Assembly: GCA_030180075.1 (NCBI GenBank)
Contig: JASNJN010000429.1
Coordinates: forward strand, 1-20,671
DNA from: Mikrocytos mackini
Taxonomy: Eukaryota > Endomyxa > Ascetosporea > Mikrocytida > Mikrocytiidae
Reading direction: 5' to 3'
Length of the DNA: 20,671 nt
In this document: positions 1,145 to 20,671 of the stretch, in pieces
How the letters are laid out: every line of letters starts with the position of its first letter
Position numbering within the stretch: the first letter of the stretch is position 1
The notes under the pieces: generated by a model
The model's input: only the letters and a program-made list of their open reading frames with translations
The model's database searches: none
What the model was told of the DNA's origin: nothing
Program-made: the position numbers and the translations under genes

Positions 1145-1330
1145 TCTAATGTAAAACAGCATTCATACTCTGATAAATGAGTTAATCATTGCAGTATAGA
1201 ACTCTAATGTAAAACAGCATCCATACTATGGTAAATGAGTTCATCATTGAAGTATAGAACTCTAATGTAAAACAGCGTCCATACTCTGGTAAATGAGTTC
1301 ATCATTGGGGTATAGAATTCTAATGGTAAC
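1145..1330. repeat. 58-bp tandem repeat, three full units plus a partial fourth
   Basis: Units begin at 1145, 1203 and 1261 with TCTAATGTAAAACAGC, and a diverged fourth start (TCTAATGGTAAC) lies at 1319. The period is exactly 58 bp each time. Units differ by a few substitutions and no indels, for example CATTCAT, CATCCAT and CGTCCAT. No ORF spans the array. It is a small minisatellite of unknown role. Confidence 0.9.
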
Positions 1331-2453: not shown

Positions 2454-3437
2454 AAACTCTTGGCTGGGGTGATAACCGTCGTTTTGACCAAACATACTTT
2501 TTACCAACCCAAACCGATGAGTCGCTGGCATTAACTACTTTCTTTATATCCGACCATCTGTTGTTGCCTTCTTTAATTCTTACTTTGTCTCCCGGTGTAT
2601 ATACTCTGTTTTAGCCTTCCTTCTCTCATCTGAACATTTCTTTATTTTCTTCTTCTTTTCATTTATTCTGGCTTGATCTATTACCTTGGAAGGCAACTCT
2701 TCTTCCCCATATAATTCGGTCAACTCTGTTCTATTCTTCTTCCCCCATATGGCCTCGAAAGGTGAAACTTTAGTTAGAGAATGAGGAGTATTATTATAAG
2801 CGTTCACAAACTCCTCCAAATACTTCATAACCTTCCACTCTCTGTCCTCCGCCTCATGTATCTTCTCTTTAAGACATCTGTTGAAACGCTCGATTTGTCC
2901 ATTGCCTTGTGGTGCGTATAATTGGCTTGGGGTGCACTTGATCTTCATTTTCCTATAAAATGCTATCATTTGTTTCGAAACTAGTTGTGTACCATTATCT
3001 GTTTTAATCTCATGGGGGCTTCCCACCCTATCAAAAACGTGTAACAATTCCCTGATTATGTCGTTACTTTTGGTTCCCTCCATCGGAATCACTTCTACCC
3101 ACTTGCTATGGTAGTCTTGTAAGGAAAGCAAGTATTTAAATTCCCCATGAAAAAATTTCCCAACTAAATCCATGGCTATCTTTATCCATGGCTTTCGAGG
3201 GATTGGTTCGTATTCAATAGGCACCTCCCTCAACTGTGTAGTTCTATCACTCCTACAACATAACTCGCATTGAGAGTGGAGAAAATTGGGCTGGAAAAAA
3301 TGGGCTGTATTTTCTAGCCCAAAAAAATTTTGGGCTGCATTTTTCCAGCCCAATTTTTGACACCCACCATGGATATACTTATGATTAATTGTGTTGCAAA
3401 TGTGCAAATAACAATAATTAATTTTTTTAATTCTCAA
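2452..3437 (-). pseudogene. Ty3/gypsy integrase (3' end of pol), frameshifted
   Basis: The main open stretch is 3437-2580. It shows an HKYIH...CELC pattern compatible with the integrase HHCC zinc finger, then the DDE core: PWIKIAMDLVGKF (first Asp), EIKTDNGTQLVS (second Asp) and QGNGQIERFNRCL (Glu), then NNTPHSLTKVSPFEAIWG. The frame closes at 2580 (HRETK stop). The usual C-terminal GDKVRI-type segment continues in another frame from about 2605 down to a stop at 2454-2452, so there is one frameshift near 2600. Reverse transcriptase and RNase H are absent upstream. A 76-bp palindrome interrupts the zinc-finger region (separate entry). The integrase inserts cDNA into the genome; this copy is a dead 3' remnant. 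Confidence 0.85.
3282..3357. repeat. nested palindrome inside the integrase zinc-finger region
   Basis: The outer arms TTGGGCTGGAAAAAATG (from 3286) and CATTTTTCCAGCCCAA (to 3353) are complementary apart from one extra A, and pairing extends into flanking AAAATT/AATTTT. Inside are further GGGCT/AGCCC blocks, including AGCCCAAA facing TTTGGGCT, giving alternative hairpins. The pol frame stays open through it. It is either a tiny foldback insertion or local palindrome growth. Confidence 0.75.
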
Positions 3438-11893: not shown

Positions 11894-12459
11894 TTAACCC
11901 TTTGACTGCGATGAGGTGTGTATATGACACCTCACTACTTTGCCTCTGACTGCGGTAAGGTACGTATATAACACCTCACTACTTTGCCTCTGACTGCGGT
12001 GAGGTGCGTATATGACACCTCGCCCATTAATGTATAATTTTAAATATTTTAAGGTTTTCGCAGTTGTTTAACAGCTTTCAAGCAAATAATTATTCATTTG
12101 CCTTTATAACAATATTATACACAATATACTTGAAGATTTGGGAAATTGGACTCTCCTATTTGTTTTAAAATTGATTTTACATATTATATTTTATCAAACT
12201 ACTTAAATACAGATTTATTTAATTTAACAAACATATGGGTTGTTATTTATTTCATATTAAATATAAATCCAAAGTTAGGAATAAATAAAGTGTTGACAAA
12301 ATGAAGAAAAATTAAATTTTGAAAAATGAAAACTCAGGTAACACCATTTAAAAACTTATTCCTAAAGTGACACACAATACCTCTTTTAAAGTAATAAACC
12401 TCTACAATTTATAGTACTTAATAAAAATTCTTCGTATGCCCACGCAGTCAAAGGGTTAA
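11894..12459. mobile_element. piggyBac-type MITE, 558 bp, flanked by TTAA
   Basis: Perfect 13-bp terminal inverted repeats CCCTTTGACTGCG (11898-11910) and CGCAGTCAAAGGG (12443-12455) are flanked by TTAA on both sides (11894-11897, 12456-12459). A TTAA target and ends starting CCC are diagnostic of the piggyBac superfamily. The interior is AT-rich and non-coding, with a short tandem repeat near the left end. It ends about 100 bp before the small ORF at 12558 and about 310 bp before the GT60 gene, so it may sit in that gene's promoter region. Confidence 0.9.
11903..12019. repeat. 44-bp tandem repeat with hairpins, inside the piggyBac-type MITE
   Basis: TGACTGCG recurs at 11903, 11947 and 11991, giving two full 44-bp units and a partial third. 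The unit starts with the inner part of the transposon's own terminal repeat. Each unit also carries a GAGGTG...CACCTC-type inverted pair around GTATATGA (imperfect in the second unit), giving a small hairpin. Confidence 0.88.
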
Positions 12460-12771: not shown

Positions 12772-13884
12772 ATGTTATTCAATTTTATTTTGCCAATCCT
12801 CTTGACAACAGCACACTGTGTGTTCAACCGTCAAAATGCAGATTTATCCTCAATTATGGTTGTGTTTGCGAATTATAGAGACGTTTATTGCTACAAGACA
12901 CTACACAATTTATTTATCAAGGCACACAACCCTGCGCGTATTTTCGTGGCATTGACACAAGAGTTAACATTTGGTGACGACAATTGTTTTACTGAAGCTT
13001 TGTCCGAGCCCTACATATCTCAACAAGAGAAGAACTGGCTTCTTAACAATGTAAAGGTCATAACGAAGCCCTTAAAAGCATCAAAAGGACTGCACCTCAA
13101 TGTTTACATTTCACAGATGTTCATTGGGTCCCACGGCTTTGCTCTGAAGATAGACACGCATTCCGATTTTAAATTTTTTTATGACAAAGAACTAATCGAA
13201 CTTTACAACCGTGTGGGAGACCAAAAGGCAGTCTTCAGCGGATTCTCTTTACCTATTCAGTACCAATACTACCCCCGAAAAGCTAGCGGGCTACCTCAGT
13301 TCACTGGGAATATTTGCTTTGTTCGAGTTTGGAGAAACGGTGTACTTCTGATCCACTCGTACGACATTATAAATCCCAGCCTATTCAGGTGTTTTTCCAA
13401 GAAGGGTTATTGCAAGGGTGTGTTTGTGACGGGCGCCTTCCAGTTCGGGCGCGCCCAGTTTATGAAAGATGTCATGTACGACAAACACATGGACTTCTTA
13501 TTCTTCGGAGAAGAAACCTTATACACGCTGCGTCTGTTCACACACGGGTACAATGTGTACATACCAACCGAGACGTACGTTTTCCACAAGCAGGAGTTCA
13601 ACAAGCTCAGAAGGTTCAAGTTTTATACGCCCAAGCCATTTGATGTTACGTCGTACAATGCAAGCATAGAAAGATACAGATACTTAATGGGGCTGAATTA
13701 CAACAGAAAGAAAGCTAATATGAAGGAAGTTGATAGGTTTGGATTAGGGAAGAAAAGAAGTTTGCAAGAATGGTACGAATATATTGGGCTGCCCACTTTC
13801 CAGAAATTCTTTTTTAATATTCAAATGCTGGACTACTTCTTTAGGGAACCGTGTGTTATGTTCAGAAAACATAACAACGAATAA
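12772..13884 (+). CDS. GT60-family polypeptide GlcNAc-transferase (Skp1/mucin type)
   Basis: A 370-residue protein. Residues 1-18 form a hydrophobic signal peptide or anchor (MLFNFILPILLTTAHC). IFVALTQE follows at about 57-64, then the DxH metal/UDP-sugar motif in FALKIDTHSDF (123-133; D128, H130), where the family usually has QIDSHMRF. The C-terminal hallmark is at about 220-272: TGAFQFGRAQFMKDVMYD, DFLFFGEE (246-248 GEE), LRLFTHGYNVYIPT and VFH. This order is that of the GT60/GlcNAc family, which transfers GlcNAc from UDP-GlcNAc to hydroxyproline of Skp1 in Dictyostelium or to Thr of mucins in trypanosomes. The N-terminal leader points to the secretory pathway, so secreted proteins are the likelier substrate (inference). 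Codon use is richer in GC than the flanks, indicating a maintained gene. The ATG follows ATCCAACCAAA. Confidence 0.85.
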   Translation: MLFNFILPILLTTAHCVFNRQNADLSSIMVVFANYRDVYCYKTLHNLFIKAHNPARIFVALTQELTFGDDNCFTEALSEPYISQQEKNWLLNNVKVITKPLKASKGLHLNVYISQMFIGSHGFALKIDTHSDFKFFYDKELIELYNRVGDQKAVFSGFSLPIQYQYYPRKASGLPQFTGNICFVRVWRNGVLLIHSYDIINPSLFRCFSKKGYCKGVFVTGAFQFGRAQFMKDVMYDKHMDFLFFGEETLYTLRLFTHGYNVYIPTETYVFHKQEFNKLRRFKFYTPKPFDVTSYNASIERYRYLMGLNYNRKKANMKEVDRFGLGKKRSLQEWYEYIGLPTFQKFFFNIQMLDYFFREPCVMFRKHNNE

Positions 13885-14392: not shown

Positions 14393-14777
14393 ATGGCATT
14401 AATCACCGTTGCATATTGCACAAGTATTTTATTTTAAAGATTGTACATTCCCAGAGGAATATTGCAAACTTTTTGAGTGTCCAAAACAAAAAACCAAAGA
14501 ACAGGGTGTTCCAAAGCGAACAAAGCTTCGTATAGTCAAGAGAAAAAAGAAAGGACACGATTTTAAGGAGATATTTGGACTCATTGAGACCCCACAGGTG
14601 CAGGAATTCGGAGAAAAGAAGTTGTTGGGCATTTTGAAGAAGCACTTCGCTTGTTCGGTCAAGATTAACCTCGATCCAAACGTAAAACAAAAAGTGCTAA
14701 CTATCCAAGGTGTGTTTGAGAACCTGGAAATAACAGCGTATCTGAGCGAGATAATGGAGCATAAGTTCTACAATTGA
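14393..14777 (+). CDS. TMA22: DENR/Tma22-like translation factor, two exons split by a 16-nt intron
   Basis: Exons 14393-14423 and 14440-14777 give 122 residues. Read straight through, the ATG frame stops at codon 15 and the conserved downstream frame has only a TTG start. Removing 16 nt yields MALITVAYCTNCTFPEEYC, the exact YCxxCxxPxEYC zinc motif that opens DENR/Tma22 proteins; C24 may be the fourth ligand, at a shortened spacing. The rest is a SUI1 domain (about 43-118): LRIVKRKKKGHDF, FGLIETPQVQEFGEKKLLG, KHFACSVKINLD and VLTIQGVFENLEI. DENR pairs with MCT-1/Tma20 to recycle 40S subunits and support reinitiation in the cytoplasm. At 122 aa it lacks most of the linker between zinc finger and SUI1 found in relatives (about 200 aa). 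Its stop is 12 nt from that of the convergent ArfGAP. Confidence 0.8.
14424..14439 (+). other. 16-nt GT-AG intron in the DENR-like gene
   Basis: GTATTTTATTTTAAAG interrupts codon 11 (phase 1: ACA A / AT TGT). Its removal clears a TAA stop, joins two frames and restores motif spacing exactly. It lies near the gene's 5' end, as microsporidian introns usually do, and is almost identical to the ArfGAP intron at 15196-15211. There is room only for a donor GTATTT and a fused branch/acceptor TTTTAAAG. A deletion-type sequence error is unlikely to create GT-AG ends. Confidence 0.75.
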
Positions 14778-14789
14778 ATTATTAGATAG

Positions 14790-15355
14790 TTACTTGAACG
14801 GGTCCCAGTCGTCTTCCTCTTCGCTGGGCTCGTTTTTGTTCTTATTAATTAAATCAAAAAATACATCTGTGCTTTTAGTCTTTTCGGGCTTCTTCTGTTT
14901 GTTTAGAATCTTTTCTGTTTCGGAGTCGGAGTCCGTGTCAACTGTATGCTTCAACGCCTCGAGTTCCTGTATCTTCTTGTCCACAAGCTCCTTTTCACTT
15001 TCTATAAACACTTTGTAAATGTATTTCTTTATGTCGTTAGGCCGAGAGATCTTCGGGGTGTCATCTATGCTGAACTTGCCTGTTAGGTACTTCTCTGCGG
15101 CTTTAATGTTTCCTCCCTTCTTCATGATATCGTCAATTTGTTCGTCAGGTATGATATTCATTGTGAGTGACTTTACAACAAGTCCTAGGCTTCTGCTTTA
15201 AAAGTAAATACTGCATTCCTGCGCATTCTTTGCACACAAATGTTAAATAATTTGTACAGATATACTGAGGAATCTTTGAAGGTAAATACAGGTGTTTTGC
15301 AAATAAAGCATGTCTTATTTCCCTTCTGGAATGAGAATTTTCGTAGTTTGTCCAT
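14790..15355 (-). CDS. ArfGAP, three exons split by two 16-nt intervening sequences
   Basis: Exons 15355-15258, 15241-15212 and 15195-14790 give 177 residues. ATG at 15355 has an in-frame TAA two codons upstream. Exon 1 reads KFSFQKGNKTCFICKTPVF; exon 2 carries FVCKECAG; exon 3 starts at RSLGLVVKSLTM and continues DDIMKKGGNIKAAEKYL. After splicing the zinc finger is C16-x2-C19-x16-C36-x2-C39, the canonical ArfGAP spacing, and AGMHRSLG supplies the catalytic arginine finger (R of HRSLG). The loop after LG is three residues shorter than usual. The C-terminal tail is acidic (SEEEDDWDPF), perhaps a trafficking motif. ArfGAPs trigger GTP hydrolysis on Arf to uncoat COPI vesicles at the Golgi. Without splicing only a 123-aa C-terminal frame from 15161 remains. 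Confidence 0.8.
15196..15211 (-). other. 16-nt GT-AG intron (second) in the ArfGAP gene
   Basis: On the minus strand GTATTTACTTTTAAAG splits the codon for the His of HRSLG (CA / C AGA). It differs from the DENR intron at only two internal positions. Its removal moves the reading frame from FVCKECAGM to RSLGLVVKS with no residue lost or gained against the family. Confidence 0.75.
15242..15257 (-). other. 16-nt GT...AC intervening sequence (first) in the ArfGAP gene
   Basis: On the minus strand GTACAAATTATTTAAC separates SSVY-CT from A-TTTGTGTGC. Removing it gives SSVYLFVCKEC and the exact 16-residue spacing between zinc-ligand pairs. It begins GT but ends AC, and no AG lies in range that would keep FVCKEC. 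It shares the length and the TTATTTAA core of the other two. Other 16-nt placements, such as starting at GTATATCT, also fix the frame but fit the family less well (SYLTFVC). Confidence 0.5.
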
Positions 15356-18879: not shown

Positions 18880-20671
18880 TTATTTAAATTTAAATTCATT
18901 CTTAAATCCTGTGGTCACGATATCCTGCTCCCTCTTTAGAAACGGCTTGAGATTTTTAATATTTTCGATAACACTTCTATTTTCTTCTTTTACTTTCACT
19001 CTGTTATCTTCCAGAACCTTTTCAATTAGATAAGGGCCTTTCCAGGGATCTTCTATCTTGTCCCTAAACTGTCTCTTTCTAAAGACCATTGTCCCTTCTT
19101 TAAACTCGAATTGTACTCTTCCTTTGTTTGTTTTGTCTTGATTTCTGGCAGCATTAATTCTTTCTTTAGTTTTTTCTTCTTGTATCCTTTCAATCAAGTT
19201 CCTTTTAGTAGGGTCAAAACAAGAGAAGTAATGTCTTTTCTCAAAAGGAGATAATCCACTAACTGTGTTCGCAGTTAGATTGAGTCTTGTTTTTATCTGC
19301 TCCTTCAATTTATCTAAGTCGTTTCCTCTTTGTACCCGTAAGACCTGTGCAATAGTGGCATTTATTCTTTCAGTTGGGGAATTGCAGGTCGGGTTGTAAC
19401 TAGAACAGTAGATTGGTTTTACGCAGTTCTCCTTGCATAGGTCCCTCCAATCTCTCGATATATACTGTCGTCCCTGATCGGACAATATGGTTTTTGGTAT
19501 AGGGAAGTTTGCTATCCAATTCTTCTCAAAAGCTTCACAGATGTCTTTCCCACGAATAGAGAATAATACTTATACTTCTACCCATCTAGTGCATAAATCC
19601 ATAAACGTAATGAAATAAAAGTTGTCTTCCGTTGCGCTTGTGTCGAAATGGTAGGTTTTGATGGGACCAAATAGATCAGTAGAAATGTATTCGTTTGGAA
19701 GTTCCTTTACTAGATTTCCTGTAACTTTCCCATACTTCGTGTTAGTCTTTTTCGTCTTCTGGCATGTTTCACATTCTTTGTTAATTCTCTCAATCCTACT
19801 CTTAACTTGAGGAATCAATAAGTATTCCTTTATAGTTCCATAAAGGGCTCGCTCGCCAGGATGTTGCAAGAAGGTGTGTAGCTCCGTCAATAGGGATGTA
19901 GCTAAGGAGGCTGGAATAACTAATCGCTCATCGGATGTAAAGAGTAGTTCATTCCCTTCTATGCTCTTAATTTGTAGTTTGCTGTTTGTACTTCCATCTT
20001 TATTGTTCTTGTCGTCGGCCATATATTTGGCTAGTAATTGGTAATCGTACTTAAATGGAGTTTCTTCTGTTCCTATCCCAAAGAGTCGCGAAAGTGTATC
20101 AGCTTTGTTATTGTCCTTCCCGGAAATGTGCCTTAAATTAAGGTTATATTCTTCAAGCTGCAGCTTCCATCTTTCGCAGCGCTTCGTAAGTTCTTTCTGA
20201 TAAAGTAAGTTTTTGTTGTCTGAGAAGACCGTTACTTTGCTAGAGAAGATTATAGTTTTGAAATGTTCTACGGCTCTGAGAATGGCCAATACTTCGCGTT
20301 CGACTATACTGTAATTCTCTTCTACAGTCGAAAGCTTCCGTGAAAACAGTCCAATCACCTTATCATTCTGATACAAGACTCCTCCTATTCCTGTGTCGCT
20401 TGCATCGACTTCTAAAAGGAATGGTAAATCGAAATTTGGGTAGTGTAGTAGCGTTTGGGCCTTGACTTCCTCAATTAGACCTAAAAGCTTTTTATTCTTT
20501 TCTTCGTCCCATGTTAGGGGTTTCCTGTCTTTTGTCATTTCTGTAAGGAATTCTATCTTTTGGCTAAGTTGTTCAATGAAGGGGCGGTACCACTGAAGAA
20601 GCCCTATTATACGTCGCAATTGTTTCTTAGACGTAGGCGCTTTTACTTCCAGTGTTCCTATTCTTTGTGTG
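18880..20671 (-). pseudogene. Ty3/gypsy pol (reverse transcriptase tail, RNase H, integrase), one internal stop, cut by window edge
   Basis: The frame is open from the right edge. It starts within the RT connection (PTSKKQLRRIIGLLQWYRPF), then RNase H (FLLEVDASDTGIGGVLYQ with its first Asp; YSIVEREVLAIL with Glu; VFSDNKNL with Asp; DNNKADTLSR). Integrase follows: HTFLQHPG...CETCQK (HHCC zinc finger), YISTDLFGPI (first core Asp), TILSDQGRQYIS (second Asp) and NSPTERINAT (Glu), then a basic C-terminal domain ending at 18880. A single TAA at 19572-19570, between the first two core Asp residues, interrupts an otherwise continuous frame, so the copy is recently inactivated or the stop is an error. 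It is a different lineage from the copy at 2452-3437 (SDQGRQ against TDNGTQ, different C-terminus). Confidence 0.9.

What the first reader, a model, noticed from the sequence alone, without database searches (positions are those of the whole stretch)
14790..15355. The neighbouring ArfGAP is rebuilt by two further 16-nt removals, one nearly identical to the DENR intron
The annotatable frame (15161-14790) lacks the zinc finger and arginine finger. These lie upstream in two other frames. Taking out 16 nt twice gives C-x2-C-x16-C-x2-C, then HRSLG, then VKSLTM and KKGGN in order, and total exon length is a multiple of three. The second removed segment, GTATTTACTTTTAAAG, differs from the DENR intron at only two bases. 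Three gaps of identical length in two genes argue for a mechanism with a fixed intron size rather than random frameshift decay. Standard gene finders would miss such introns and report truncated proteins or pseudogenes.
Basis: partly seen in the sequence, partly recalled or inferred. Interest (0 to 1): 0.92.

Follow-up and report, generated by a model that had tools for sequence, protein, structure and literature searches.

The report
Known 16-base introns of Mikrocytos mackini
A gene that looks broken is interrupted by two 16-base introns that the cell cuts out, a known oddity of a tiny oyster parasite, and its splicing RNA seems to have changed to fit them.

Summary
The ArfGAP gene (15355-14790, minus strand) is interrupted by two 16-nt introns. 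GAHX01 is the Mikrocytos mackini transcriptome, so the window is M. mackini or a very close relative. Its 16-nt introns (217 of 224 are 16 bp) were published in 2023 (PMC10245619).

In the window's own genome the 16-nt motif occurs 124 times against 17 for its reversed control; pooled lengths 13-15 and 17-20 show no excess. Two things I did not find in print: U6 carries AAAGAGA where ACAGAGA is usual, which pairs with the fixed GTATTT 5' splice site, where T replaces the usual +5 G; and a UBC9 intron has no A at positions 4-12, so its branch adenosine must lie in the terminal AAAG. The class is ordinary; the U6 and branch-site details are testable extras.

The parts
15290..15355 (-). ArfGAP exon 1 (66 nt, starts at ATG, ends KTP)
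   Evidence: matches P0001
15274..15289 (-).
   Evidence: Pfam 71.7 against 58.8 bits; transcript-derived protein lacks it
15212..15273 (-). ArfGAP exon 2 (62 nt; IPQYICTNYLTFVCKECAGM plus two bases of the His codon)
   Evidence: identical in P0001
15196..15211 (-).
   Evidence: absent from P0001
14790..15195 (-). ArfGAP exon 3 (406 nt with stop; contains the 123-aa frame listed)
14393..14423 (+). DENR exon 1 (31 nt)
   Evidence: no transcript found
14424..14439 (+). DENR candidate intron, 16 nt, GTATTTTATTTTAAAG, phase 1
   Evidence: Pfam DENR_N match spans the junction but is below cut-off
14440..14777 (+). DENR exon 2 (338 nt with stop), convergent with ArfGAP, 12 nt between the two genes

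Best explanation
The 16-mers are spliceosomal introns of the mikrocytid parasite Mikrocytos mackini (Rhizaria). They are GT-AG introns with almost fixed length and sequence, GTATTTNNNTTNAAAG. Shown: the ArfGAP mRNA lacks both. Inferred: a reduced spliceosome recognises GUAUUU by pairing +4 to +6 (UUU) with a changed U6 box (AUAAAGAGA in place of AUACAGAGA). U2, whose GUAGUA element is unchanged, selects a branch adenosine inside the terminal AAAG, so branch site and 3' splice site are fused. The intron then holds little beyond its two recognition elements, which would explain the uniform length.
For: Transcript: P0001 (eukprot GAHX01000697.1.p1) equals the spliced product at 176 of 177 residues, one D/N difference. 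GAHX01 is the M. mackini transcriptome in Table 1 of PMC9998036. PMC10245619 reports 224 introns in 179 genes, 217 of 16 bp and 7 of 17 bp, in M. mackini, with U2, U4 and U6 found.
Length: 16-nt motif 124 against 17 reversed; 17-20 nt together 87 against 124; 13-15 nt together 69 against 85.
Donor: non-T at +5, 11 against 19; at +6, 22 against 25; at +4, 20 against 71.
Frame: at 31 sites (the first 28 in the list plus the window's 3), removal of a length of class 1 mod 3 leaves at least 30 open codons on both sides in 17 of 31, against 6 of 31 (class 0) and 5 of 31 (class 2); random positions in the same stretches give 16%, 32% and 11%.
U6 and U2: one U6 and one U2 above Rfam's cut-off (48 and 46 candidates scored).
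Branch: the UBC9 gene (L055) with GTATTTCTTTTTAAAG removed aligns to solved UBC9s without a gap at the junction (best E 1.3e-35).
Against: Only the ArfGAP has transcript support here. The DENR search found none. The UBC9 search, with a partial protein and a strict cut-off of 1e-30, scored none of 3 candidates. The crude frame test does not favour class 1 at two of the window's three sites and barely does at the third (25/33/31, 24/26/26, 52/50/16 codons for classes 1/2/0). Of 24 A-less motifs (24 against 1 reversed), 14 were examined. Class 1 is the best class in two (L035 at 37 codons, L054) and ties in L055 at 53 codons, which rests on homology. In the other 11 it is not the best class (7 are longest unspliced, 3 with class 2, 1 tie of those), so most examined A-less matches are not supported as introns. 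U1 and U5 gave no Rfam hit, but those searches had no positive control. Pooled length counts could hide a few 17-nt introns. The U6 and branch-site roles are inferred from sequence only.
Confidence: 0.95

Rival explanations
1. One reading: the first ArfGAP intron is 15257-15242, GTACAAATTATTTAAC.
For: Gives the same total length, x16 finger spacing and a full-length frame, and an ArfGap match of 58.8 bits.
Against: Ends in AC; 12.9 bits lower than the alternative; matches the transcript-derived protein at 165 of 177 against 176 of 177; does not fit the genome-wide motif.
Confidence: 0.01
2. Frameshift decay: ArfGAP and DENR are pseudogenes or carry assembly errors.
For: M. mackini has many transposable elements and divergent genes according to PMC10245619, and the frames are broken as read.
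Against: A transcript-derived protein carries the exact spliced product. Random decay would not give one length and one motif.
Confidence: 0.02
3. The segments are removed by something other than the spliceosome, for instance a protein that excises fixed-length RNA, or DNA elimination before transcription.
For: Length is almost invariant and the motif extends over most of the element. The protein match alone cannot tell RNA from DNA removal.
Against: GT-AG ends, U2 and U6 present, a reduced spliceosome reported in print, and a U6 box that fits the donor. PMC10245619 mapped RNA reads, counted intron-spanning ones and estimated splicing efficiency, with 16-bp introns spliced more often than 17-bp ones (63% against 37%).
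Confidence: 0.03

Closest known systems
16/17-bp introns of Mikrocytos mackini and Paramikrocytos canceri (PMC10245619)
   Same: Length, strong sequence conservation, organism. PMC10245619 reports 217 of 224 at 16 bp.
   Different: Nothing shown to differ. Its Figure 3 logo could not be seen, so the motif was not compared letter by letter. In its Results and discussion, read whole, I saw no statement on the U6 box or the branch point.
15/16-nt introns of heterotrich ciliates (Stentor coeruleus, PMC9505925, passages)
   Same: Near-minimal fixed-length GT-AG introns.
   Different: Stentor is 15 nt mainly, keeps U6 ACAGAGA and U1, and its branch A is mostly at position 10 or 11 with a 5-nt tail. 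Here U6 reads AAAGAGA and the branch A must be at 13 or 14 in at least the UBC9 intron.
18-21 bp introns of the chlorarachniophyte nucleomorph (as described in PMC10245619)
   Same: Short, narrow size range in a reduced genome.
   Different: Longer and more variable.
Introns with fused branch site and 3' splice site (Giardia, Trichomonas, some microsporidia; recalled)
   Same: Branch site next to the 3' splice site.
   Different: Longer introns; recalled, not tested here.

Membership tests
Mikrocytid 16/17-nt spliceosomal introns | Length 16 (rarely 17) nt | tested here: met
   Both ArfGAP introns are 16 nt; motif excess at 16, none in pooled 13-15 or 17-20
Mikrocytid 16/17-nt spliceosomal introns | Strongly conserved sequence with GT-AG ends | tested here: met
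   GTATTT...AAAG in all three window introns; +4, +5, +6 show no excess of non-T
Mikrocytid 16/17-nt spliceosomal introns | Absent from mRNA | tested here: met
   Met for ArfGAP by a transcript-derived protein; not shown for DENR
Mikrocytid 16/17-nt spliceosomal introns | Host organism is a mikrocytid | tested here: met
   176 of 177 residues shared with GAHX01000697.1, M. mackini transcriptome. One gene only; the rRNA search did not complete
Mikrocytid 16/17-nt spliceosomal introns | Removed by a reduced spliceosome | tested here: inconclusive
   U2 and U6 found; U1, U5 no hit without positive control; U4 and spliceosomal proteins not searched here
Heterotrich-ciliate tiny introns | Branch A at position 10 or 11 | tested here: not met
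   UBC9 intron GTATTTCTTTTTAAAG has no A at positions 4-12; one intron, supported by homology
Heterotrich-ciliate tiny introns | Canonical U6 ACAGAGA box | tested here: not met
   AAAGAGA at G000:C124:5457-5555

The most novel reading that the evidence does not exclude
In M. mackini the donor and U6 have changed together. The 5' splice site is fixed as GUAUUU, with U where +5 is usually G, and U6 has AAAGAGA in place of ACAGAGA, which restores three pairs at +4 to +6. At the other end the branch adenosine lies within the terminal AAAG, leaving a 13- or 14-nt lariat loop and a tail of 2 or 3 nt. This would be a natural compensatory change in one of the most conserved snRNA boxes, tied to one of the smallest intron classes.
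Probability: 0.6. Interest if true: 0.6.

Novelty: already known. Interest (0 to 1): 0.38.

Why it matters
The finding itself is a largely correct rediscovery, from sequence alone, of a published extreme of intron reduction, and it shows how gene finders truncate such genes. The added value is a concrete model for how so short an intron is read: donor fixed to match a changed U6 box, and branch site merged with acceptor. Both can be tested with existing reads from the two mikrocytids.

Tried and rejected
Microsporidia were my first guess for the organism, from recall; dropped. A predicted-duplex calculation of donor with U6 chose a pairing register unrelated to the known one and was discarded; in that register the changed U6 box scored worse, not better. 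The +4 to +6 pairing is read by hand from the letters. The A-less count of 24 against 1 is not taken at face value: 11 of the 14 examined are not supported as introns by frame, so the branch argument rests on the UBC9 gene. rRNA identification was not obtained. ARAGORN found no tRNA in the window nor in the U6 and U2 loci. Rfam at gathering cut-offs found nothing in the window.

Full report
What is there. On the minus strand from 15355 an ATG opens a frame whose continuation changes frame twice before the listed frame 15161-14790. Two different choices of a first 16-nt removal give a 534-nt frame with the same second removal. The better choice is 15289-15274, GTATTTACCTTCAAAG, which begins GT, ends AG and resembles the other two window introns. 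Against solved structures it aligns best with an ArfGAP, 3sub, without gaps over the finger (E 3.9e-11).

Transcript proof. A search of about 5.8 billion proteins returned one hit at E up to 0.001, P0001, E 8.4e-112, with the whole query covered. Table 1 of PMC9998036 (section read) names GAHX01000001.1 as the Mikrocytos mackini transcriptome. So both ArfGAP introns are absent from an assembled mRNA, and the window comes from M. mackini or a very close relative. G000 has 13.6 Mb in 733 contigs, and the 20 contigs sampled are all at least 10 kb; this may be a part of the published 49.7-Mb assembly, which I could not check.

Literature. PMC10245619 (abstract and the whole of Results and discussion read, other parts as passages) reports that M. 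mackini has 224 predicted introns in 179 genes, 217 of 16 bp and 7 of 17 bp, highly conserved, with splicing estimated from RNA reads (16-bp introns spliced about twice as often as 17-bp ones, 63% against 37%), and that P. canceri has the same kind. PMC11069148 (passages) reports few and very short introns in both. PMC9998036 says that no obvious spliceosomal introns were seen in P. canceri (passage), which shows how easily they are missed.

All pattern counts are over the whole of G000, both strands, against the same pattern read backwards. GTATTTNNNTTNAAAG: 124 against 17. The same ends with one to four more inner bases (lengths 17-20 pooled): 87 against 124. With one to three fewer (13-15 pooled): 69 against 85. 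So the one peak is at 16; a few 17-nt introns could hide in the pool. The first 28 places in the list plus the window's three were tested for reading frame. Removing a length of class 1 modulo 3 leaves at least 30 open codons on both sides in 17 of 31; classes 0 and 2 give 6 and 5. Random positions in the same stretches give 16% for class 1, 32% for class 0 and 11% for class 2. Some of the 124 are therefore not introns, and repeat copies are among them. The window's own sites are not favoured in this crude test (25, 24 and 52 codons for class 1; class 1 is best only in the last, and by two codons); their exons are short.

Conserved genes with the same kind of gap. A ubiquitin-conjugating enzyme (L003): the piece after the motif matches UQ_con at 127.2 bits, the 43-residue piece before it matches nothing on its own, and the joined product aligns over the junction with 2pwq at E 2.3e-41. 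A ferredoxin (L046): the piece after the motif matches Fer2 (24.2 bits, cut-off 21); the piece before it has no Fer2 hit but ends in GIEIE, which with one split codon leads into ACEGSCACSTC. A UBC9 (L055): see below. Three genes that look like Tc1/mariner transposases (L002, L007, L054) carry the motif near the same place, with phases 2, 1 and 0. Pfam supports L007 (HTH_Tnp_Tc3_2 before, DDE_3 after). L002 is by eye, and L054's 50-residue pieces gave no Pfam hit. Pieces of L048 gave only one sub-threshold hit and of L037 none.

Donor and U6. At +5 a non-T is found 11 times against 19, at +6 22 against 25, at +4 20 against 71. So GTATTT shows no excess of any alternative at +4 to +6. A single U6 gene passes Rfam's cut-off among 48 candidates scored (65.8 bits). 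Its box reads AUAAAGAGA, where the Rfam consensus reads AUACAGAGA; that is the only changed base in the stretch from GGAACGAU to CUGCG. By established pairing (recalled), +4 to +6 of the donor face the first three bases of ACAGAGA; UUU and AAA are fully complementary, whereas UUU and ACA are not at +5. U2 keeps GUGUAGUAUCUGUUC.

Branch site. The UBC9 gene in L055 has the motif GTATTTCTTTTTAAAG between HPI and GFFAKP. The joined product aligns without a gap there to 3rcz (E 1.3e-35) and to 5f6d, the two alignments shown. This intron has adenosines only at 3, 13, 14 and 15. If it is spliced by branching on an adenosine before the AG, that must be 13 or 14. In Stentor the branch adenosine is mostly at 10 or 11 (passages). 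The UBC9 intron has no transcript support here (strict cut-off 1e-30, partial protein). A-less motifs are 24 against 1 genome-wide, but of 14 examined class 1 is the best class in two (L035, L054) and ties in L055.

What I did not find in print. Searches for U6 snRNA with Mikrocytos (one paper, PMC10245619), ACAGAGA with AAAGAGA and U6 snRNA (none), AAAGAGA with spliceosom (two listings, unrelated by title), and the text of PMC10245619 for branch point, branchpoint and splice site (the only hit is a reference title). Broader searches gave 54 and 45 papers, of which 10 each were listed and, from these, only PMC9505925 was opened. Subscription papers and supplementary files were not searched, and figures could not be seen.

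Verdict. Real, corrected in one coordinate pair, and already known as a class. The U6 box and the fused branch site are the parts worth a specialist's time.

Noticed in passing
L002 (C4), L007 (C19), L054 (C162; L005 on C17 is a similar copy), at the motif: Three Tc1/mariner-like transposase genes seem to carry 16-nt host-type introns within a few codons of the same place, in phases 2, 1 and 0; this suggests intron gain or sliding in mobile elements (only L007 is supported by Pfam).
   Followed up: partly
L009 1422-1500: A tRNA-like sequence ends exactly where the U6 gene begins (Rfam tRNA-Sec 20.8 bits, below its cut-off of 47, E 0.07; ARAGORN reports none).
   Followed up: partly
window 12772-13884 +: Open frame of 370 aa matching GlcNAc glycosyltransferase (PF11397, 165.5 bits).
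   Followed up: no
window 2580-3437 - and 18880-20619 -: Frames that look by eye like retroelement integrase and RNase H/integrase pieces; not scanned.
   Followed up: no
window 1145-1325 and 11899-12021: Tandem arrays with 58- and 44-base units, about three copies each.
   Followed up: no
window 14777-14790: DENR and ArfGAP are convergent with 12 bases between them.
   Followed up: no
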